Notes under the pieces: generated by a model
Told to the model about the DNA's origin: nothing
Databases searched by the model: none
What the model saw: the letters and a program-made list of their open reading frames with translations, nothing else
Shown here: in pieces, positions 22,121 to 34,057 of the stretch
How positions within the stretch are numbered: position 1 is the first letter of the stretch
How the letters are laid out: each line of letters starts with the position of its first letter
Source of the DNA: Actinomycetota bacterium
Lineage (GTDB): Bacteria > Actinomycetota > Thermoleophilia > Solirubrobacterales > 70-9
Reading direction: 5' to 3'
Assembly (NCBI GenBank): GCA_018268675.1
Contig: JAFDWB010000094.1
Location: forward strand, 62,001-126,000
Length of the DNA stretch: 64,000 nucleotides
Position numbers and translations under genes: made by a program

Positions 22121-22918
22121 GTGTTCAGCAAGCGCCTCCCGATAGCGAAGATGGCCGCTGCCGTCGTTGCCCTCTCAGCGGTGATCGCCGCGGTCATGCT
22201 GTCGATCAACTGGAACGGTGCGGAGGATTCGACCGCCGCCCCGAAGATCGACGACCTGCTGAACATCGAGATCGTCCTCTCCTCGATCATCTTCTCGATC
22301 GTCGTCGTCGCGCTCGGCTACGCGCTCTACAAATTCCGCGCCAAACCGGGGGACGAATCGGACGGCGAGCCGATCCACGGCAACACCCGCCTGGAGATCA
22401 CCTGGACCTTGGTCCCGACGATCATCGTCCTCTTCTCGGGCGCCTGGAGCTGGAAAGTCCTCAACGAAATCGAAGAACCGGCCGCCCACCAGCTGACCGT
22501 CGACGTCTTCTCCCAGCAGTACGCCTGGTCCTTCGGCTATCCGGGCAAAGAATACGCCTACTCGCAGGGAGTTCTGCACGTCCCGGTGAACCGCCAGATC
22601 GTCTTCAAAATGCACTCCCAGGACGTGATCCACTCGTTCTGGGTCCCCCAGTGGCGGATCAAGAAAGACAACGTCCCGGGCATCACCACGACCGCGCTGA
22701 TCACGCCGACCAAGATCGGGCACTACCAGGTGATCTGCACCCAGCTGTGCGGCTTCGGCCACGCCGCGATGCGGGCGAAGGTGATCGTCCAGTCCGAATC
22801 GGCCTTCGACAAGTGGGTGGAAGGCCTCAAAGAAAAAGTGCCGACCCCGCTGATGGTGTCGGTCAAACAGGACACCCAGACCAATCCGGAACCGCTTGAA
22901 CAGGTGGAAGCGGAATAA
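22121..22918 (+). CDS. ctaC: Cytochrome c oxidase subunit II (functional paralogue)
   Basis: A 265-residue subunit II with two membrane helices (about residues 12-32 and 48-75) and an external cupredoxin domain. The full CuA site is present: His in DVIHSFWVPQ and CTQLCGFGHAAM (C-x3-C-x3-H-x2-M). It takes electrons from cytochrome c. GTG 22121 is chosen because TAGAAT (22107-22112) lies eight bases before it; an ATG at 22073 would add 16 residues. It starts the ctaC-ctaD-usp-ctaE group. Confidence 0.95.
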   Translation: MFSKRLPIAKMAAAVVALSAVIAAVMLSINWNGAEDSTAAPKIDDLLNIEIVLSSIIFSIVVVALGYALYKFRAKPGDESDGEPIHGNTRLEITWTLVPTIIVLFSGAWSWKVLNEIEEPAAHQLTVDVFSQQYAWSFGYPGKEYAYSQGVLHVPVNRQIVFKMHSQDVIHSFWVPQWRIKKDNVPGITTTALITPTKIGHYQVICTQLCGFGHAAMRAKVIVQSESAFDKWVEGLKEKVPTPLMVSVKQDTQTNPEPLEQVEAE

Positions 22919-22932
22919 TGGAGGCGAAGTAG

Positions 22933-24834
22933 ATGATTGCGACGTTCACCCGACCCGGCTGGTACCGCGCTGTGCTCTGCACCGTGCTCGCGGCCGCGTT
23001 CGGGTTCGGCATCGTGGTCCTCCTGCGCGTGATCTCCGGTCTCCCCGCGATGCAGACCGAGCAGACCGGCTACCCGCAGGTGGTCGTGCCGTTGATCACC
23101 GCGCCACTCGGCTTCCTGCTCGGCATCGGCTGCTTCGACTACTGGATCCGCTGGGGCATCGGCATGCCGACGATCCCCGACGATCACTCCTCCCACGGCG
23201 CCTACAGCTGGAAGGACTACTTCAAGGTCAACACCGATCACAAGGTGATCGGCATCCAGTACATCGTCACCTCGTTCTTCTTCTTCCTCGTCGGCGGCCT
23301 GATGGCGATGCTGATCCGGGCCGAGCTCGCGCAGCCGGGCACCCAGATCGTCAGCGCCGCCACCTTCAACGGCCTCTTCAGCACCCACGCCGTGCTGATG
23401 ATCTTCGTCTTCATCATCCCGATGTTCGCCGGGATCGCGAACTACGTCCTGCCGCTGATGATCGGCGCGCCGGACATGGCCTTCCCGCGGCTGAACGCGC
23501 TCAGCTACTGGATGCTGCCGATGGCGGGGATCCTCTTCCTCGCCTCCTTCCTCGCTCCCGGCGGCGCCTTCGACGCCGGCTGGACGGGCTACGCGCCGCT
23601 TTCCACCGGGGCCCCGCTGGGCCAGTCGTTCTTCAACATCGGCGTCCAGTTCGCGGGCTTCTCGTCGATCTTCACCGCGCTCAACTTCCTGGTCACGATC
23701 ATCACCATGCGTGCGCCCGGGATGACCTTCTGGCGCATGCCGCTGCTGGTCTGGGCGAACCTCTCGACCTCCCTGCTGGTCGTCGCCGCGACCCCGTTCA
23801 TCTCCGGCGCCCAGTTCATGGTCCTCTTCGACCGCATCCTGCACACGAACTTCTTCCAGTTCGGCGCCGGCGGCGACGTGATCAGCTACCAGCACATCTT
23901 CTGGTTCTACTCCCATCCGGCGGTCTACATCATGATCCTGCCCGGGTTCGGGATCATCTCCGAGGTCATCTCGATCCATTCCCGTAAACCGATCTTCGGT
24001 TACCGCCTGATGGCGCTGGCGCTGATCGGGATCATCGTGCTCAGCTACTCGGTCTGGGCCCACCACATGTTCGTCGCGGGCATGTTCTCGTGGCTGCGCG
24101 TGCCGATGATGTTCACCACCCTGCTGATCGCGGTGCCGACCGGGATCAAGATCTTCTCCTGGCTGGGAACGCTCTATTTCGGCAAGATCCACACGAAATC
24201 GACGGCGATGCTGTTTGCGCTCGCCTTCATCGTGACCTTCACCATCGGCGGGATATCCGGCGTCATGCTCGGCATGGTGCCGTTCGACATCCACGTCTCG
24301 CAGACCTACTTCATCGTCGCCCACATCCACTTCGTGCTCTTCGGCGGCTCGGTCTTCACGATCTTCGCCGGCCTCTACCACTGGTTCCCGAAGATGACGG
24401 GGCGGATGTACGACGAGAAACTCGGCCGCATCCACTTCTGGGGAACCCTGATCGGCACCTGGGGAACTTTCGTGCCGATGCACTGGATCGGCATGGAGGG
24501 GATGCCGCGACGCGTCGCCGACTATGCCTCCCAGTTCGGCAACTGGAACCTGCTGATCAGCTGCTTCGCCTTCATGCTCGGCGCCGTGCAGCTCATCTTC
24601 GTCTACAACATGATCGTCTCCTGGCGGTTCGGCCCGAAGGCGGAGGCCAACCCGTGGCGCGGCAACTCGATCGAGTGGCTCGTGTCCTCGCCGCCGCCGG
24701 TGTTCAACTTCGACGAGATCCCGCGCGTCGTCGGCGGCCCGTACGAGTACGGCATCCCGGGCGCCCGCCACGCGATCATGGGCGGCGAAGGCGCCGAGGT
24801 TCCGGCGACCCAGCCGAGCGTGGTGGGCACGTGA
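22933..24834 (+). CDS. ctaD: Cytochrome c oxidase subunit I, A2 type
   Basis: A 633-residue heme-copper oxidase core subunit. All ligands are visible: heme a His in STHAVLMIF, CuB His in FYSHPAVY, the CuB pair in AHHMFVAG and the heme pair in AHIHFVLFGG. The YSHPxVY motif in place of GHPEVY marks the A2 subfamily, in which Tyr/Ser substitute for the D-channel glutamate. The K-channel lysine is in PTGIKIF. Two extra membrane helices precede the core (about residues 9-37 and 47-70). It reduces oxygen to water and pumps protons. Confidence 0.96.
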   Translation: MIATFTRPGWYRAVLCTVLAAAFGFGIVVLLRVISGLPAMQTEQTGYPQVVVPLITAPLGFLLGIGCFDYWIRWGIGMPTIPDDHSSHGAYSWKDYFKVNTDHKVIGIQYIVTSFFFFLVGGLMAMLIRAELAQPGTQIVSAATFNGLFSTHAVLMIFVFIIPMFAGIANYVLPLMIGAPDMAFPRLNALSYWMLPMAGILFLASFLAPGGAFDAGWTGYAPLSTGAPLGQSFFNIGVQFAGFSSIFTALNFLVTIITMRAPGMTFWRMPLLVWANLSTSLLVVAATPFISGAQFMVLFDRILHTNFFQFGAGGDVISYQHIFWFYSHPAVYIMILPGFGIISEVISIHSRKPIFGYRLMALALIGIIVLSYSVWAHHMFVAGMFSWLRVPMMFTTLLIAVPTGIKIFSWLGTLYFGKIHTKSTAMLFALAFIVTFTIGGISGVMLGMVPFDIHVSQTYFIVAHIHFVLFGGSVFTIFAGLYHWFPKMTGRMYDEKLGRIHFWGTLIGTWGTFVPMHWIGMEGMPRRVADYASQFGNWNLLISCFAFMLGAVQLIFVYNMIVSWRFGPKAEANPWRGNSIEWLVSSPPPVFNFDEIPRVVGGPYEYGIPGARHAIMGGEGAEVPATQPSVVGT

Positions 24835-25724
24835 GCGACGCTGCCGCCGGGGTCGAGAAGCGCCCGCTGCTCGTCTTCCTGAACGAGGTCGCCGGCGGTC
24901 GCGGCCTCCTGCACGCCGTACGCGAGCGCGTGGAGGGCGGCACCGTCTCCCAGGTGATCGTCGCCGCGCCGCAGAACCAGCCGACGATCGGCACGCTGAT
25001 CGATCGCGACGAGCTCTATGCCTCCGCCCGCGCCCGGGTGGAGGTGACGATGTCGGTGTTCGCCGAGTTCGGCATCGACTCGGTCGGCGAGGTCCTCGAC
25101 CCCGCTCCGCAGCTCGCCTTCGGTGACGCCCTGCGCGCCCACCGGCCCGCCGAGGCGCTCTTCTCGGCGCTCTACGACACCCGCTACGGGCTCGCCCGCA
25201 AGGACCTCGTCGAGGTGGCCCGCGCCGAGGCCGAGCCGGAGGTCGCGTTCACCCACATCCCGGTCCGCGTCGAAGAGGACGCGATCCGGCTCGACCTCAG
25301 CCACGTGCTGGTGGTGGCGACGAAGACGGTCGCCGCGCCGGACCTGGTCGCGCGCCTCAAGGAGCGCGCCGCCGTCCGCCCGCACCGCTACACGATCATC
25401 TGCCCGCGCACCGAGGACGTCCCCGAGGAGCAGGTCATCCGCGACCTTGCCTCGACCCTTGCCGAGCTCTACCGGGCCGAGGTCGACGCGACCGGCCTGC
25501 CGATCTCGAGCGACGACCCGTTCAAGGCCGTGCGCAACGCGATCGAGCACTACAAGATCGACGAGATCCTGATCTCGACCCTGGCCGGCGAGAAATCGCG
25601 CTGGCTGCAGAGCGACCTGCTGGGGCGGGTCCGCGAGATCACCGACAAGCCGGTGACCCATGTCGAGTCCGGCCGCGCTCCGGCGGCCTTCGCCGCGGTC
25701 GTGGCAGAGGGGGGTGAGCACTGA
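24831..25724 (+). CDS. Usp-like tandem-domain protein inside the oxidase operon
   Basis: A 297-residue soluble protein that looks like two universal-stress-type alpha/beta halves: the second half reads VLVVATKTVAAPDLVARL and later DEILISTLAGEKSRWLQ and KPVTHVES. Function is unknown; such proteins often bind nucleotides. GTG 24831 overlaps the ctaD stop and the TGA overlaps the ctaE ATG, so it is tightly coupled to two oxidase subunits. That placement suggests a role in oxidase regulation or assembly (inference). Confidence 0.6.
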   Translation: MSDAAAGVEKRPLLVFLNEVAGGRGLLHAVRERVEGGTVSQVIVAAPQNQPTIGTLIDRDELYASARARVEVTMSVFAEFGIDSVGEVLDPAPQLAFGDALRAHRPAEALFSALYDTRYGLARKDLVEVARAEAEPEVAFTHIPVRVEEDAIRLDLSHVLVVATKTVAAPDLVARLKERAAVRPHRYTIICPRTEDVPEEQVIRDLASTLAELYRAEVDATGLPISSDDPFKAVRNAIEHYKIDEILISTLAGEKSRWLQSDLLGRVREITDKPVTHVESGRAPAAFAAVVAEGGEH

Positions 25725-26365
25725 TGGAGAGCGCTTCCGTACCGCTTCCGCACGGTGGCGGGGGGCACACCGCCGAGGCCCACCACCATGGGCCGCCGGC
25801 CGCGAACCAGAGCTCGCGGATCGACCGCCAGACGCTCGGCATCTTCCTTTTCATCATCTCCGAGGTGATGCTGTTCGGCTCCTTCTTCGCCTCCTACTTC
25901 TTCCTCCGCGTCGTCGTCAACCCGGTCTCCTGGCCGCCGTACCCGTTCGAATTGCCGGTCGCCATCGCGGGGATGAACACGGCGATCCTGGTCTCCTCGA
26001 GCTTCACCATCCACTACGCGCTCGAGGCGATTCGCAAGGGCAACCGTCAGGGCATGAAACTCGGCCTGGTGCTGACCTGGATCCTCGGCCTGACCTTCCT
26101 CTTCGTCCAGATCAACGAGTACGTGCACCTCGGCTTCAGCGGCCGCACCGAGTCGTTCGGGACGATCTTCTACTCGCTGACCGGGCTGCACGGCGCCCAC
26201 GTCTTCATCGGGCTGATTCTGCTCTCGGCGGCGACCCTGCGCGCCTTCCGCGGTCACTTCTCCAAAGAGCCCGAGAAGCACCTCGGGGTCGAGGTGCCGG
26301 GCATCTACTGGCACTTCGTGGACATCATGTGGATCATCGTGTTCGCCACGGTGTACATCCTCTAG
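25724..26365 (+). CDS. ctaE: Cytochrome c oxidase subunit III
   Basis: A 213-residue membrane protein with five helices, the short form of subunit III. Recognisable segments are LGIFLFIISEVMLFGSFFASYF near residue 37, LTGLHGAHVFIGL near 150 and PGIYWHFVDIMWIIVFATVYIL at the end. The N-terminus is His-rich (HGGGGHTAEAHHHGP). It stabilises the catalytic core. Its ATG overlaps the preceding stop as TGATG. Confidence 0.94.
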   Translation: MESASVPLPHGGGGHTAEAHHHGPPAANQSSRIDRQTLGIFLFIISEVMLFGSFFASYFFLRVVVNPVSWPPYPFELPVAIAGMNTAILVSSSFTIHYALEAIRKGNRQGMKLGLVLTWILGLTFLFVQINEYVHLGFSGRTESFGTIFYSLTGLHGAHVFIGLILLSAATLRAFRGHFSKEPEKHLGVEVPGIYWHFVDIMWIIVFATVYIL

Positions 26366-26660: not shown

Positions 26661-27029
26661 ATGGAGGCAACGACGGTAAGGCGAACGGAGATAGTCATGA
26701 CAGAGGGCTCTGAGGTTGGGCTCGCTGATTTCGCGGCGAGGATGGATGAACGCTTCGACAGGGTTGACGAAAAGCTCGACCGAGCTGACGAAAAGATGGT
26801 CGAGCGGCTTGATCGGGCCGAGGAAAGATCAGACGGGCGCTTTGCAAGGGTGGACGAAAGGTTTGTCGAGGTAAACCGGCGCCTCGGTTACCTCGACCAT
26901 GAGGTCGGGAGGGTGAACGACCGGGTCGACGATCTCGTCAAGGTGCTCATCGGCGGCCTCGTCGGGTTCACCGGAGCCATCCTGGCCGGCTTCGCGGCGA
27001 TCCTCGCTATGATCGCTACGCAGCTTTAG
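26661..27029 (+). CDS. Coiled-coil protein with C-terminal membrane anchor
   Basis: A 122-residue protein. Residues 20-90 form a charged heptad-like coiled coil with repeated units such as ERFDRVDEKLDRADEKM, and residues 93-120 form a membrane helix (GGLVGFTGAILAGFAAILAM). It resembles small tail-anchored coiled-coil proteins of unknown role. ATG 26661 follows TTAGCT closely; ATG 26697 is an alternative. Its 3' end overlaps the convergent membrane protein gene by 14 bases. Confidence 0.65.
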   Translation: MEATTVRRTEIVMTEGSEVGLADFAARMDERFDRVDEKLDRADEKMVERLDRAEERSDGRFARVDERFVEVNRRLGYLDHEVGRVNDRVDDLVKVLIGGLVGFTGAILAGFAAILAMIATQL

Positions 27030-27816
27030 GAAGGTCCTTAGGGCGTCGCGCGGGGACGCCGCCTGCCCACAGCTCGAGCGTCAGTAGGGTGAGCGCGACG
27101 GGGACGGTCGCGGGGGTAGTCTTGATCGCGAAGAAGAGGAGGTCCCAGGCGCAGCAGAGGGTGCCGGCGAGGATGGCGCCGCGGGCCTGGAGCCGGGGGT
27201 CGCGGGCCAGGAGGGCGCCGAGGACGGCGGCGATGAAGAGGTCGCCGAAGCCCATCAGCGCCCCGCCCCAGCTGACCAGCTGCAGCTTCGGCAGGTTGGC
27301 GGCGGGCGCGGCGGCGTTGAGGACCGAGTTCGGTTCCTGCAGCAGTTCGGTGAAGACGAGGTAGGCGTCGACCGCCGCCATCGCGTAGATGCCGAGCTTC
27401 ACCCAGCGGGCGGGCACCACGCAGACGAGCAGCCAGCCGAGGCTGACGCAGGCGAGGGCCGAGAGCGCCAGCGCGCACGACTGCCCGCCGAGCTCGCCCC
27501 TCGCCGCCCAGGCGACCGCGAAGAGGGGGATCGCAGCGAGCGCCAGCCACGGACGCGCCCCGTGCACGAGCCAACCGAGCGCGACCGCCGCCAGGGGCGG
27601 GACCGCGACCAGCGCCAGCCAGGTGAGGAACGTCGCCGAGGCCGAGTCGAGGGCGATGCCGCCGATCGCGACGACGATCGAGAGCGGCAGCACGAGCGCC
27701 CACCAGCGTCCCTGGAGACGGCCCAGCAGGGGGATCTCGACTGGGGCCCTGGGCACGGCCACCAGGACCCCCTGGACGAGGCTGAGGACTCCGATCGAGA
27801 GCCAGAACGGGAGCAC
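27016..27816 (-). CDS. Nine-helix membrane protein, possible presenilin-like aspartyl protease
   Basis: A 266-residue integral membrane protein that I read as nine helices. Helix 6 holds Asp150 (IYAMAAVDAYLVF), helix 7 holds GFGD (189-192), and helix 9 holds PVAL (239-242). This layout matches the YD / GxGD / PAL arrangement of presenilin and signal-peptide-peptidase intramembrane proteases, though helix 6 has VD instead of YD. If correct, it would cut transmembrane segments. The alternative is an unrelated polytopic protein with chance motifs. It starts at GTG 27816, 18 bases downstream of ctaA, so the two are probably co-transcribed. Confidence 0.5.
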   Translation of the reverse strand: MLPFWLSIGVLSLVQGVLVAVPRAPVEIPLLGRLQGRWWALVLPLSIVVAIGGIALDSASATFLTWLALVAVPPLAAVALGWLVHGARPWLALAAIPLFAVAWAARGELGGQSCALALSALACVSLGWLLVCVVPARWVKLGIYAMAAVDAYLVFTELLQEPNSVLNAAAPAANLPKLQLVSWGGALMGFGDLFIAAVLGALLARDPRLQARGAILAGTLCCAWDLLFFAIKTTPATVPVALTLLTLELWAGGVPARRPKDLPKAA

Positions 27817-27834: not shown

Positions 27835-28824
27835 TCAGGCCGGACCGGCGCCCGCGCCGGCGGGTTCCGTGGCCCGGTTCGCGCCCCCGCCGCTCGCCGC
27901 CGCCGTCCCGGACCGAGGCTCGAGCCGTCCCGCGGCGGCGATCGTCCACAGCATCGCCAGCCAGTTGAAGGTGGCAAGCGCGACGTGCACCCAGACGATC
28001 TCGGTCGGGAGTTCGAGTTCCCACTGCACGTAGCCGACGACGCCCTGCACCGCGAGCAGGATCAGCACCACGGTGAGCGGTTTCAGCGCCCGCCGGTCGC
28101 CACCGGGGCGGCGCAGGTAGAACCAGACGCCGATCGCGGCGAGGCCGTAGATCGTGGCCAGGATGGCGTGGCGCTGCACCACCCATTCCAGCGTGCGGGC
28201 GCCCTCGAAGGTGAAGCGCTGGACGAACTGCCCCTGGAACTCGCCGGCGTGTGGGCCTGAGCCGGTGGCGACGGTGCCCGCGAGGATCGTCAGCTGCCCG
28301 AGCGGGACCAGGCAGCGCACCGCCCAGACGCCCTTGCGGTCCCACGAGCGCCGGCGGTCCCAGGGCTCGTAGCGCGAGCACCACATCAGCGCGAAGCCCG
28401 CGTCGAGCAGCATCATCGAGAGGATGAAATGGCCCATCACGAGTTCCGGCCGCAGGTCGTACTTGACCACCAGGGCGCCGAGGATCGCCTGCGCGACCAC
28501 GCCGAGCGGGAGGAGGGCGCCGATCCACGCGAGGTGGCTGCGGAACGGGCGGCGGAAGAAGGCCAGGAGGCAGGCGGCGATCACCGCGATGCCGAGGAAT
28601 GCGGTGATGATCCGGTTGCTCATCTCGATCACCGCGTGCGTTTCGAGCGGTGGTACCGGCCCGCCGTAGCACTTGGGCCAATTCGGGCAGCCCAGACCCG
28701 AGTCGGTCAGGCGGACGGCGGCGCCGGTGAGCACGATCAGCGCCAGGCCGCCGAGGGCGATCGCCGTCACCTGGGCGTAGCGGTGCGGGGAGATCTCGAA
28801 ACGATTTCGAAGGCTCGCGAACAT
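27835..28824 (-). CDS. ctaA: Heme A synthase (COX15/CtaA family)
   Basis: A 329-residue membrane protein with eight helices. Family marks are TGAAVRLTDSGLGCPNWPKC near residue 33, the heme-binding histidines in EMSNRI and MGHFILSM regions, a second-half VQRHAILATIYG and VWVHVALATFNWL. It oxidises heme O to heme A for the aa3-type oxidase encoded nearby. The C-terminal tail is Gly/Ala-rich. It lies upstream of the presenilin-like gene on the minus strand. Confidence 0.93.
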   Translation of the reverse strand: MFASLRNRFEISPHRYAQVTAIALGGLALIVLTGAAVRLTDSGLGCPNWPKCYGGPVPPLETHAVIEMSNRIITAFLGIAVIAACLLAFFRRPFRSHLAWIGALLPLGVVAQAILGALVVKYDLRPELVMGHFILSMMLLDAGFALMWCSRYEPWDRRRSWDRKGVWAVRCLVPLGQLTILAGTVATGSGPHAGEFQGQFVQRFTFEGARTLEWVVQRHAILATIYGLAAIGVWFYLRRPGGDRRALKPLTVVLILLAVQGVVGYVQWELELPTEIVWVHVALATFNWLAMLWTIAAAGRLEPRSGTAAASGGGANRATEPAGAGAGPA

Positions 28825-28864: not shown

Positions 28865-29560
28865 TCACTTGCCGCCGGATTTTTTGCCGGCGTTTTCGGC
28901 GAGGAATTCGGCCAGTTGTTTGAGTTCCGCCGGCGGGATTTTTTCGCCGAAGTTTTCCGGCATCACGCCCTTCGGGTAACCCGGGACGTTTCTGGCCTTG
29001 GCGTTGACGATGAATTCTTCGATCTGGGGGACCGACTTGCCCGGCAGGACTTCGTCCAGGTCGGGTCCGGTGGTGCCACCCGAGTTGGCGGCGGCGAAGG
29101 TGTGGCAACTGCCGCAGCCGTTGGTGGCGAAGACCTGGGCGCCGGGGCCGCCCGCGACTTCTGGCGGCTTCGCGCCCGGCACGCCCGCGTACTTGCCGAC
29201 GTAGGCGGCGATGTCGTTGAGGTCGGTGCCCTCGACGAGGTGGGGCGGCATGGTCGCCATTTCGTTGCCGTTGCCGGGGCGGGGGGTGTCCACCTGAGCT
29301 TCGACGATGCCTTCGATCGTGGCGGCGTCGAAACCGCCGGCTTCGCGCGCCGCGGCGAACGCGTCGTCGAGGTTCGGTCCCAGCGTGCCACTGGTGCCCG
29401 CCTGGGCAAGCGTGTGGCAGGTGCCGCATTTCGCCACGAACAGCTCGCGGCCGCGAGCGACGTCGGGGTTGGTGGTCCCGCACCCGGAAATCACGACGAC
29501 CATCGCGACCAGGGCCGCGATGGGGACGAGCAGGCGGATTGGCTTGGGGAGGTTCAGCAT
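28865..29560 (-). CDS. Diheme cytochrome c lipoprotein
   Basis: A 231-residue exported protein with a lipobox (VVVISGC near residue 27) and two class I cytochrome c domains: CGTCH near residue 45 and CGSCH near residue 150. Met ligands are likely in MATMPPHL and KGVMPENF. It should sit outside the membrane and carry electrons to the oxidase, which needs a c-type donor for its CuA site. Lys/Glu codons lean to AAA/GAA. It is 40 bases upstream of ctaA. Confidence 0.9.
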   Translation of the reverse strand: MLNLPKPIRLLVPIAALVAMVVVISGCGTTNPDVARGRELFVAKCGTCHTLAQAGTSGTLGPNLDDAFAAAREAGGFDAATIEGIVEAQVDTPRPGNGNEMATMPPHLVEGTDLNDIAAYVGKYAGVPGAKPPEVAGGPGAQVFATNGCGSCHTFAAANSGGTTGPDLDEVLPGKSVPQIEEFIVNAKARNVPGYPKGVMPENFGEKIPPAELKQLAEFLAENAGKKSGGK

Positions 29561-30164: not shown

Positions 30165-30479
30165 TCAGCCCTGGGGACGGCTCGAGGAGGGGCGGGACTC
30201 GAGGTAGATCTGCTCGACCGGCAGGGTGGCCGGAGGGACGTCCTGGCGGCGGGGCAGGCTGAAGTAGCTGCGCACCGAGCTCTTGACGATCGCGCGGAAG
30301 GCGAAGAGCAGCACGATGATCCCGAGGTAGGACCAGATGAAGGCGGAGAAGACGAAGCCGTTGGCGTAGATCCCGGCCACGGCCGCGGTCGCGCCGATCG
30401 CGAAGAAGGCCGGGCCCCACGAGGGACGCGGCGTCTGGATCGTCTCGCCGGCCTGCGGGATGTGGCGGCGCTCGCTCAT
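30165..30479 (-). CDS. Cytochrome c oxidase subunit IV-like membrane protein
   Basis: A 104-residue protein with two helices (about residues 24-42 and 45-62; AFFAIGATAAVAGIYANGF and AFIWSYLGIIVLLFAF). It has the layout of the small actinobacterial oxidase subunit IV (CtaF). It is the last gene of the minus-strand cluster with ctaB and the ligand-free oxidase paralogues. Its ATG overlaps the stop of the 38-residue membrane peptide. Confidence 0.6.
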   Translation of the reverse strand: MSERRHIPQAGETIQTPRPSWGPAFFAIGATAAVAGIYANGFVFSAFIWSYLGIIVLLFAFRAIVKSSVRSYFSLPRRQDVPPATLPVEQIYLESRPSSSRPQG

Positions 30480-31550: not shown

Positions 31551-33239
31551 TCAGGCTACCGGCTGCGACTCACGAGCCGCGCGCTGCTCGACCTCGCGGG
31601 CGCGCTCGGCGATCGCCGCGCGGATGTCGCGCAACGGCCGCGCACTGCGGACGTCGGGTTGGACGTCGAAGTTGTGGACCGGCGGTGGCGAGATCGCGAA
31701 CCACTCGAGCGTGTCGCCGCCCCAGGGGTCGTGGCCGGCGCGGGCGCCGCCCTTCACGCTCGCCACCGCGTTGATCAGGATCAGCACCACGCCGACGAAG
31801 AGGATCAGCACCCCGATCGAGGCGAGCATGTTGTAGAAGTTCACGCCGGTGTGGTTGAAGAACTTGTAGGCGTCGACCACCTGGCCCTCTTCCCAGCCCG
31901 CCAGCGCCATCGGCACGAAGGCGACCAGGGTGCCGACCGCGGTGATCCAGAAGGAGAGCCGTCCTAGCTGTTCGCCCATCGCCCGGCCGGTGATCTTCGG
32001 GAACCAGTAGTGGAGCGCGGCGATCCCGCCGAACACCGCGCCGCCGATCAGCGCGAAGCTGGTCGCCGCGGTCGAGTCGGTGGTGCCTTTGAGGTAGAAG
32101 GCGGCGCCGACCAGCGACTGCTGCATCTCCGCCGCGAGGCCCAGCGAGATCGACACGAGCGCGCCGATCGCGAACAGCACCGGCGTCCGCATCCGCAGCG
32201 CGCCGCCGTTCAGGGTCGCGATCAGGTTGAAGAAGACGAGCCCGATCGGCACGATCAGGGCGAGCGCCATCAGCATGCCGAAGTACTTCCAGCCGATGCC
32301 GATCGGGGCCGTGTACATGTTCTGCAGGTAGGCGAGCGTGCCGATCACCGCGATCGCCACGATCGAGCCCATCACCGCGTTGCGGTTGAACAGCTCGTTG
32401 CCGGAGAAGACGGCGAAGATTTCGGCCACCGCGGCGAAGGCGAAGATCAGCACCAGCATGTAGGCGCCGGAGTAGAAGATCCAGGTGAGGTGCTGCCAGA
32501 GGATCGGCGCGCCGCCGGCGCCGTTGATGAAGAAGGTGCCGTCGTAGTTGCGGTCGACCATCAGCATCGTGAAGGCGGCGAGCAGGATGGGGCCGATGAA
32601 GAGCATCAGCCAGGAGCCGACCGCGGCGGTCCAGGCGAAGATCGGGGCGCGGCGCCAGGCCATCCCCGGGGCGCGGTCGACCCGGAGGGTGGTGGAGAGG
32701 TCGACCGCGATCAGGACGAAGCCGAGCGTCGCGAAGCCGCAGGCCGTGAGCCAGGCGTCGACCCCGTTGTTGCCGAGGTAGGCGAGCTCGGAGAGCGGCG
32801 GCAGCGGGTTGACGCCGGCCTCCGAGGGGGTCCAGAGGAAGCCCGCGTAGAGGACGATCGAGCCCATCACCCAGAGCGCCGCCCCGATCTGGCTCAGCCG
32901 CGGCAGTGCCGTGCCCCGCGCCCCCACCTGCAGCGGCGCGACGTAGAGGAAGATCCCCATGATCAGCGGCAGGGCGAAGAAGAAGATCGAGGTCGCCCCG
33001 TAGAACGAAAGCACCCGGTTGAAGGTGACCGGTTCCATGAAGGTGTTCTCCGGGATCGCCAGCTGCAGCCGCATCAGCAGCAGCTCGAGCGCGGCGAGGA
33101 AGAGGAAGCCGCCGCTGCCGACCATGAGGATCTTGGCGACGTCCTTGTGGTCGGCGCTCGTGACCAGGTCGCCCCAGGCGTAGCGGCTCCGGCGCGGGAA
33201 GCCGTCGACGGCGATCTCAGGACGGGGCTGCTCGCTCAT
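31551..33239 (-). CDS. Heme-copper oxidase subunit I paralogue lacking all metal ligands
   Basis: A 562-residue, uninterrupted homologue of subunit I: TSADHKDVAKILM start, FYVAPLQVGA-like second helix region (IFLYVAPLQVGARGTALPRL), HYWFPKITGRAMGEQLGRLSFW and the C-terminal DPWGGDTLEWFAISPPPVHNF all align with the intact paralogue at 22933. Every redox ligand is changed: heme a His to Tyr80, first CuB His lost at Ser257-Gly258, CuB His pair to Gln306-Asn307, heme a3 and heme a His to Ala392 and Ser394. The K-channel Lys is Val335. It cannot bind hemes or CuB in the known way. The stop-start overlap with the subunit II paralogue shows co-expression. Role unknown: scaffold, ion path or assembly partner are all possible. 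Confidence 0.85.
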   Translation of the reverse strand: MSEQPRPEIAVDGFPRRSRYAWGDLVTSADHKDVAKILMVGSGGFLFLAALELLLMRLQLAIPENTFMEPVTFNRVLSFYGATSIFFFALPLIMGIFLYVAPLQVGARGTALPRLSQIGAALWVMGSIVLYAGFLWTPSEAGVNPLPPLSELAYLGNNGVDAWLTACGFATLGFVLIAVDLSTTLRVDRAPGMAWRRAPIFAWTAAVGSWLMLFIGPILLAAFTMLMVDRNYDGTFFINGAGGAPILWQHLTWIFYSGAYMLVLIFAFAAVAEIFAVFSGNELFNRNAVMGSIVAIAVIGTLAYLQNMYTAPIGIGWKYFGMLMALALIVPIGLVFFNLIATLNGGALRMRTPVLFAIGALVSISLGLAAEMQQSLVGAAFYLKGTTDSTAATSFALIGGAVFGGIAALHYWFPKITGRAMGEQLGRLSFWITAVGTLVAFVPMALAGWEEGQVVDAYKFFNHTGVNFYNMLASIGVLILFVGVVLILINAVASVKGGARAGHDPWGGDTLEWFAISPPPVHNFDVQPDVRSARPLRDIRAAIAERAREVEQRAARESQPVA

Positions 33240-34057
33240 TCTTTGGTGCTCGCTTCTTCGGTTTCTTCGGTCGTGACCCCGGCTTCGGCTTCACCGGCTG
33301 ATTTTTCCGCTTTGGCGTGGGCTTCTTCGGCGGCTTCGAATTCCGCCAGTTCTTTCACCTTGATCGCGTCGATCGCCTCGGCCGCTTCCTGGCCTTTGTG
33401 GATGTTCTTCTGCTGTTCGGTGATGAATTCTTCGAAGCGTTCTGGCGAGACCACTTCGACCGCGGTCCGCATCGAGGCGTAGGCCTGGCCCGAGAAGGTC
33501 GCCGACTGGCCCCAGAATTCGCCTTCGGCGTCGGCCCGGAAGACGATCCTGGTGTCCTTGCCGGGGACCGCGTCCACCTTCGGCGCCAGGTCCGGGACGC
33601 TCCAGGTATGGACCACGTCGGTAGATTCGACCTGCAGTTCGATCGCGGTGTGGACCGGGATCACCAGCTTGTAATAGCTGAAGGCGCCGTTCGGGTAGTC
33701 GTAGCGCCAGAGCCACTGCTGACCGGTCGCCTTGACTTCCAGCGGCCCTTCGAGCGGCTTGCCGTGGTAGGAGGTGAGGCCCCCGGAGGTGGTCTGCGGC
33801 GTGCTCGTCGCGTTGCTGGTGAAGATGATCCCGAGCACGAACAGGACGACGGCGAAGCCTGAAAGCGCGCCCGCGACGCGGTACTGGAGGCCGCGGGGGC
33901 CCCGCGTCTGATGCGCCGCGCGGCCGCGCCCGCCGCGATTGCGCCCGATCGCCCCGAAGAGGCCGAGGTTGATCACGACCACGACGATCAGGGCGGCGAA
34001 GAAGCCGATCCAAATCAGGGTGTTTATCTGGCCGGTGCCAGGCGAGTGCGGCGTCAA
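33236..34057 (-). CDS. Oxidase subunit II paralogue lacking most CuA ligands
   Basis: A 273-residue protein with two membrane helices (about 12-32 and 62-80), the cupredoxin domain (GQQWLWRYDYPNG, STDVVHTWSVPDL) and a long Glu/Ala-rich C-terminal tail likely to form a coiled coil. In the CuA loop the two Cys are Ser185 and Ser189 and the His is Tyr193; only His150 and Met196 remain. So CuA cannot form. It starts at TTG 34057, preceded by TAGAAT at nine bases. It overlaps the ligand-free subunit I gene by four bases, so the pair evolved together. Confidence 0.85.
   Translation of the reverse strand: MTPHSPGTGQINTLIWIGFFAALIVVVVINLGLFGAIGRNRGGRGRAAHQTRGPRGLQYRVAGALSGFAVVLFVLGIIFTSNATSTPQTTSGGLTSYHGKPLEGPLEVKATGQQWLWRYDYPNGAFSYYKLVIPVHTAIELQVESTDVVHTWSVPDLAPKVDAVPGKDTRIVFRADAEGEFWGQSATFSGQAYASMRTAVEVVSPERFEEFITEQQKNIHKGQEAAEAIDAIKVKELAEFEAAEEAHAKAEKSAGEAEAGVTTEETEEASTKE

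What the first reader, a model, noticed from the sequence alone, without database searches (positions are those of the whole stretch)
31551..33239. Oxidase subunit I paralogue that has lost all six histidine ligands
Aligned by eye with the intact subunit I at 22933, this 562-residue protein keeps the fold and flanking segments (TSADHKD start, HYWFPK, DPWGGDTLEWF end), but the heme a His is Tyr80, the first CuB His is gone (Ser257-Gly258), the CuB pair is Gln306-Asn307, and the last two heme histidines are Ala392 and Ser394. The K-channel Lys is Val335. The frame is full length with no stop or shift, so it seems maintained. I know no described heme-copper oxidase class without any ligand. It may be a scaffold, an ion path or an assembly partner.
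Basis: partly seen in the sequence, partly recalled or inferred. Interest (0 to 1): 0.9.

Follow-up and report, generated by a model that had tools for sequence, protein, structure and literature searches.

The report
Metal-free cytochrome oxidase look-alike pair
A whole family of soil and water bacteria keeps, under selection, a two-part copy of the oxygen-reducing respiratory enzyme in which essentially all heme- and copper-binding residues are gone, so the enzyme's shape appears to be kept for something other than respiration chemistry, most likely as a structural or assembly partner.

Summary
The 562-aa frame (minus strand, 31551-33239) is a full-length A-type oxidase subunit I with no histidine at any of the six heme/CuB positions (Y80, S257, Q306, N307, A392, S394) and no D- or K-channel residue. 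This is not one decayed gene. In the same GTDB family 48 of 50 genomes have it. All 46 scorable copies lack the first five histidines (three unreadable at the first); 18 lack all six, 28 keep the sixth. Codon-model omega is 0.06-0.13 against 0.04-0.07 for the intact oxidase subunits. AlphaFold gives an intact fold (Z about 51). Sister families carry an intact A1 oxidase at the equivalent locus, so an active enzyme was converted, perhaps twice (family f4 is also degenerate). The two pseudo-subunits co-evolve. Best reading: a cofactor-free pseudo-oxidase heterodimer kept as scaffold or assembly partner beside the working A2 oxidase and heme A synthesis genes; that role is inferred. A ligandless COX1-like orphan is already reported in Acetobacter, so this is a new variant, not unprecedented.

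The parts
31551..33239 (-). pCoxA: cofactor-free subunit I (562 aa), A1 lineage; Y80, S257, Q306, N307, A392, S394 in place of the six His
33236..34057 (-). pCoxB: subunit II with cupredoxin domain; CuA Cys-Cys-His replaced by Ser-Ser-Tyr (motif GQSATFSGQAYASM), first His and Met kept; 4-base overlap with pCoxA; long C-terminal helix
30629..31543 (-). ctaB, heme O synthase (UbiA family), next gene downstream of pCoxA; adjacency also found with the intact A1 oxidase of sister families
30165..30479 (-). 104-aa small membrane protein conserved in the cluster, no Pfam family
28865..29560 (-). di-heme cytochrome c lipoprotein conserved in the cluster
27835..28824 (-). ctaA, heme A synthase
22151..22918 (+). 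CoxB2, intact subunit II of the A2-type oxidase (CuA ligands present)
22933..24834 (+). CoxA2, intact A2-type subunit I (all six His, K and D channel residues)
25724..26365 (+). CoxC, subunit III of the A2-type oxidase

Best explanation
The pair at 31551-34057 descends from an A1-type aa3 oxidase (subunits I and II) that stopped binding heme a, heme a3, CuB and CuA and became a cofactor-free pseudo-oxidase. Shown by sequence: loss of metal ligands in both subunits, loss of the D and K proton channels and of the heme-propionate arginines, retention of the fold, purifying selection, and conservation across a family. Inferred: the two subunits still form a heterodimer in the membrane. Inferred and less certain: the heterodimer acts as a structural or assembly partner of the working respiratory chain encoded around it (the A2-type oxidase, CtaB/CtaA, a di-heme cytochrome c), for example as a docking or stabilising half, comparable in logic to heme-free CydB beside CydA.
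For: Ligand and channel loss in all 46 scorable family members; the former CuB pair is uniformly Q-N (45 of 46; one R-N) and the propionate Arg is Asp in 44 of 46, so the pocket was rebuilt rather than left to drift. Positions that by numbering match heme a3-contacting glycines are now Leu368 and Glu371 (that they contact heme a3 is my own knowledge). CuA lost in every family pCoxB examined. Omega 0.066-0.091 for pCoxA and 0.060-0.127 for pCoxB, against 0.036-0.051 and 0.071 for the intact CoxA2 and CoxB2. pCoxA and pCoxB rates are coupled (residual Spearman 0.57, p 0.003). Conserved gene order pCoxB-pCoxA-ctaB near the A2 cluster. Intact predicted folds.
Against: No interaction is shown. Rate covariation finds no link of pCoxA to CoxA2 (-0.01) or CtaB (-0.08) (only 25 branches). 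Adjacency to ctaB is inherited from the intact A1 operon, so it is not independent evidence. One 97%-complete family genome (G029) keeps CoxA2/CoxB2 but lacks pCoxA, pCoxB, CtaB and CoxC, so the pair may be dispensable there, or the assembly is missing a block. pCoxA evolves about 2.8 times faster than CoxA2 in amino acids.
Confidence: 0.5

Rival explanations
1. A partner specific to heme A synthesis: pCoxA/pCoxB stabilise CtaB (and CtaA) or act as an empty acceptor or chaperone for heme O/A on its way to the A2 oxidase.
For: pCoxA lies directly upstream of ctaB (window gap of 7 bases) and in several genera upstream of a ctaA-like gene and then ctaB. The same role was proposed in print for the Acetobacter ligandless COX1-like protein (PMC10715153).
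Against: Intact A1 oxidases of sister families also sit next to ctaB, so the position is ancestral. No rate covariation with CtaB. It does not explain why subunit II is kept too.
Confidence: 0.2
2. A new binding or transport function in the emptied core: the conserved Q306-N307-E371-D456 set and Q104 bind a non-heme ligand, an ion or a quinol.
For: These polar residues are newly conserved in the family, not random.
Against: No channel residues remain and there is no known analogue. E371 and D456 could equally be structural fillers. I had no coordinates to measure the pocket.
Confidence: 0.15
3. A residual or novel heme site: 28 of 46 homologues keep His at the sixth position, mostly with Tyr at the first, so a Tyr/His-ligated heme is possible in those genera.
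For: Y and H counts at the two columns; the two columns are the axial heme a positions in the ancestor.
Against: The window protein and its two closest relatives have Ser there. The deep genera have neither residue. The propionate Arg pair is lost.
Confidence: 0.07
4. A decaying remnant with no function.
For: Active-site positions vary; one genome lacks it; one or two metagenome copies appear shortened or shifted at the N-terminus, and another has only assembly Ns there.
Against: Present in 48 of 50 family genomes over 45-90% protein identity, omega 0.07-0.09, strict Q-N and Asp replacements, partner subunit kept.
Confidence: 0.04

Closest known systems
A1-type aa3 cytochrome c oxidase (CtaC/CtaD) of the actinobacterial III2IV2 supercomplex (PDB 6adq, 7q21)
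   Same: Homologous over the full length, same predicted fold (Z 51.6, rmsd 2.2 A over 526 residues to 6adq_F), conserved N- and C-terminal motifs
   Different: No heme a, heme a3, CuB or CuA ligands, no D or K channel, no propionate Arg pair
COX1-like protein of Acetobacter lacking all metal-binding residues (Matsutani et al. 2014, as cited in PMC10715153)
   Same: A subunit I homologue without metal ligands, retained in a cluster with ctaB
   Different: In A. pasteurianus 386B only subunit I is reported (PMC3751514), so no working cytochrome c oxidase is expected there; here subunit II is kept as well, next to an intact A2 oxidase, and conservation and selection were measured across a family
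CydB of cytochrome bd (comparison from general knowledge)
   Same: A heme-free subunit with the fold of its catalytic partner, kept for assembly and structure
   Different: Unrelated superfamily; no evidence here that pCoxA binds the intact CoxA2
Degenerate bc1 complex of acidophilic Acetobacteraceae (PMC10715153)
   Same: Respiratory complex subunits that lost cofactor ligands but are kept, with a structural role proposed
   Different: Different complex; partial ligand loss

Membership tests
Heme-copper oxidase superfamily, subunit I (Pfam COX1) | Sequence homology over the 12-helix core | tested here: met
   PF00115 1.1e-74, 252 bits against a cut-off of 34.8
Heme-copper oxidase superfamily, subunit I (Pfam COX1) | Fold | tested here: met
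   Predicted model pLDDT 83, Z about 51, 1.3 A over 493 residues to 2gsm_A
Heme-copper oxidase superfamily, subunit I (Pfam COX1) | Six conserved histidines binding heme a, heme a3 and CuB | tested here: not met
   Y, S, Q, N, A, S in the window protein; the first five lost in all 46 family members, with three unreadable at the first
A1-type oxygen reductase | D-channel Asp, Glu of HPEVY, K-channel Lys and cross-linked Tyr | tested here: not met
   G, A, V, M in the window protein
A1-type oxygen reductase | Phylogenetic placement with A1 subunits | tested here: met
   Groups with order-level A1 subunits, apart from A2; the exact branch with f4 is affected by long branches
Cytochrome c oxidase subunit II | CuA ligands in the C-x3-C-x3-H-x2-M motif | tested here: not met
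   S, S, Y replace C, C, H; Met and the upstream His are kept
Ligandless COX1-like protein of Acetobacter | Subunit I homologue without metal ligands in a ctaB cluster | tested here: met
   the Acetobacter sequence itself was not compared, only the published description
Ligandless COX1-like protein of Acetobacter | Common descent with that protein | not tested
Pseudogene | Relaxed selection or broken frame | tested here: not met
   omega 0.066-0.091, frame open in nearly all members

The most novel reading that the evidence does not exclude
A dedicated, cofactor-free oxidase heterodimer (pseudo subunit I plus pseudo subunit II) that evolved from an active A1 oxidase, possibly twice in one bacterial order, and works as an obligate non-catalytic partner of the active A2 oxidase or its supercomplex.
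Probability: 0.35. Interest if true: 0.85.

Novelty: new variant of a known kind. Interest (0 to 1): 0.62.

Why it matters
Heme-copper oxidases are among the most studied enzymes, and their fold is usually thought of as a cofactor holder. A family-wide, selected pair from which both subunits have lost their metal sites shows the fold can be kept for other reasons. It offers a natural test of what the protein scaffold does without redox chemistry. It also warns that counting COX1/COX2 homologues overestimates oxygen reductases in metagenomes: the window genome has five COX1 hits above the Pfam cut-off, one of which cannot be an oxidase.

Tried and rejected
Misalignment or frameshift: rejected by a near-ungapped alignment and the structure model. 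Single decayed copy: rejected by family-wide conservation and omega. NG86 pairwise dN/dS gave higher ratios (medians 0.24-0.50 for the pseudo-subunits), which I attribute to extreme GC3 depressing dS; the codon-model values are preferred, but both are below 1. Switch of complex III as the trigger: a Rieske/cytochrome b/cytochrome c locus looks alike in families with and without the pseudo-oxidase, though the gene scan was crude. One origin or two: the A1-line tree puts degenerate f4 with f1 (support 99, AU rejects the alternatives at p about 0.001), but the CoxA2 tree puts f4 with f2/f3 (99/97), so long-branch attraction or two losses cannot be separated. Pocket geometry could not be measured, since model coordinates are not released. 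Further literature searches gave no report of a ligandless subunit I in Thermoleophilia; most subscription papers are not held, and Matsutani 2014 itself was not read.

Full report
Observation. The ORF at 31551-33239 lies on the minus strand and encodes 562 aa. It is a COX1 homologue over its whole length (PF00115, 1.1e-74; NCBIfam CtaD_CoxA 4e-100 but below that model's cut-off). The overlapping upstream gene, 33236-34057, is a COX2 homologue in which the CuA motif CxExCxxxHxxM reads SATFSGQAYASM: Cys, Cys and His are replaced, while Met and the upstream His remain.

Surroundings. Reading along the minus strand the order is pCoxB, pCoxA, ctaB, a 104-aa membrane protein, a di-heme cytochrome c, ctaA. 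On the plus strand lies an intact A2-type oxidase: CoxB2, CoxA2, a 297-aa protein of no Pfam family, CoxC. The window genome has five COX1 loci; the other four score 435-503 bits against Pfam COX1, this one 253.

Conservation. Of 50 genomes of the same family, 48 have a close homologue. In all 46 that could be scored (45 relatives plus the window) the CuB positions are S/T/A, then Q-N (one R-N), and the heme a3 histidine is replaced. The first heme a histidine is replaced in 43, and three have no readable residue there. The second heme a position keeps His in 28 and has none in 18, the window included. So 'lost all six' is right for this protein and 17 relatives, while most relatives lost five. 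The D-channel Asp, K-channel Lys, HPEVY Glu and Tyr and the propionate Arg pair are lost throughout. Gene order is conserved. Named relatives are Solirubrobacterales metagenome genomes, among them isolates 70-9 and 67-14. A family of the same order, f4 (five genomes), is also degenerate but keeps the first CuB His in four of five. Two f4 CoxB proteins were checked: both lost CuA. Families f2 and f3 of the order, and nearly all sampled subunits of other families, keep every ligand; one partial exception is listed under noticed in passing.

Origin. Trees without the ligand columns place the family clade and f4 next to the intact A1 subunits of f2/f3 and far from A2, and f2/f3 have CoxB-CoxA-ctaB at the equivalent place beside the A2 cluster. 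An active A1 oxidase was therefore converted. Whether this happened once or twice is open: the A1-line tree groups f1 with f4 (AU p about 0.001 against the alternatives), while the CoxA2 tree groups f4 with f2/f3, and long branches are in play.

Selection. Codon-model omega is 0.091 and 0.066 for pCoxA in two genera, 0.127 and 0.060 for pCoxB, against 0.051 and 0.036 for CoxA2 and 0.071 for CoxB2. Simple counting gives larger ratios, still below 1. Branch-rate residuals couple pCoxA to pCoxB (0.57, p 0.003) and to no other gene tested; with 25 branches and several comparisons this is modest evidence. Newly fixed residues include Q306, N307, L368, E371 and D456. By numbering, 368 and 371 fall on glycines that I recall as packing on heme a3; this was not measured.

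Structure. The pCoxA model (pLDDT 83) matches A-type oxidases at Z about 51. The pCoxB model keeps two membrane helices and the cupredoxin domain and has a long C-terminal helix.

Mechanism. Shown by sequence: a pair without metal ligands, kept by selection. Inferred: the pair forms a heterodimer and serves as a scaffold or assembly partner. The alternative of a CtaB-specific partner has a published parallel in Acetobacter (A. pasteurianus 386B is reported to have only subunit I), but here ctaB adjacency is ancestral.

Novelty. A ligandless COX1-like protein has been mentioned before, so this is a new variant: both subunits, family-wide, under measured selection, beside an intact oxidase.

Noticed in passing
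L242 (G141:C11:55741-57297, same class): A subunit I homologue that keeps both heme a histidines and the heme a3 histidine but has Q and Y at two CuB positions and A and R at the K- and D-channel positions: a different, partial loss.
   Followed up: partly
L256 (G000:C74:33000-50000), matching L004: Another COX1 of the window genome keeps all six His but has HPVVY, Glu at the K-channel and Gln at the D-channel position, near a cytochrome b gene.
   Followed up: partly
24831-25724 +: A 297-aa protein between CoxA2 and CoxC, conserved at this place across the order, with no Pfam or NCBIfam family.
   Followed up: no
L255 (G029:C2:66000-85900): A 97%-complete family genome with CoxA2/CoxB2 but no pCoxA, pCoxB, CtaB or CoxC found.
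   Followed up: partly
27016-27816 -: A 266-aa membrane protein downstream of ctaA, conserved in the genus, no Pfam family.
   Followed up: no
L123-L127 (family f4): A second degenerate subunit I clade with V-V, Q-V or T-V in place of the CuB His pair and a very long stem.
   Followed up: partly
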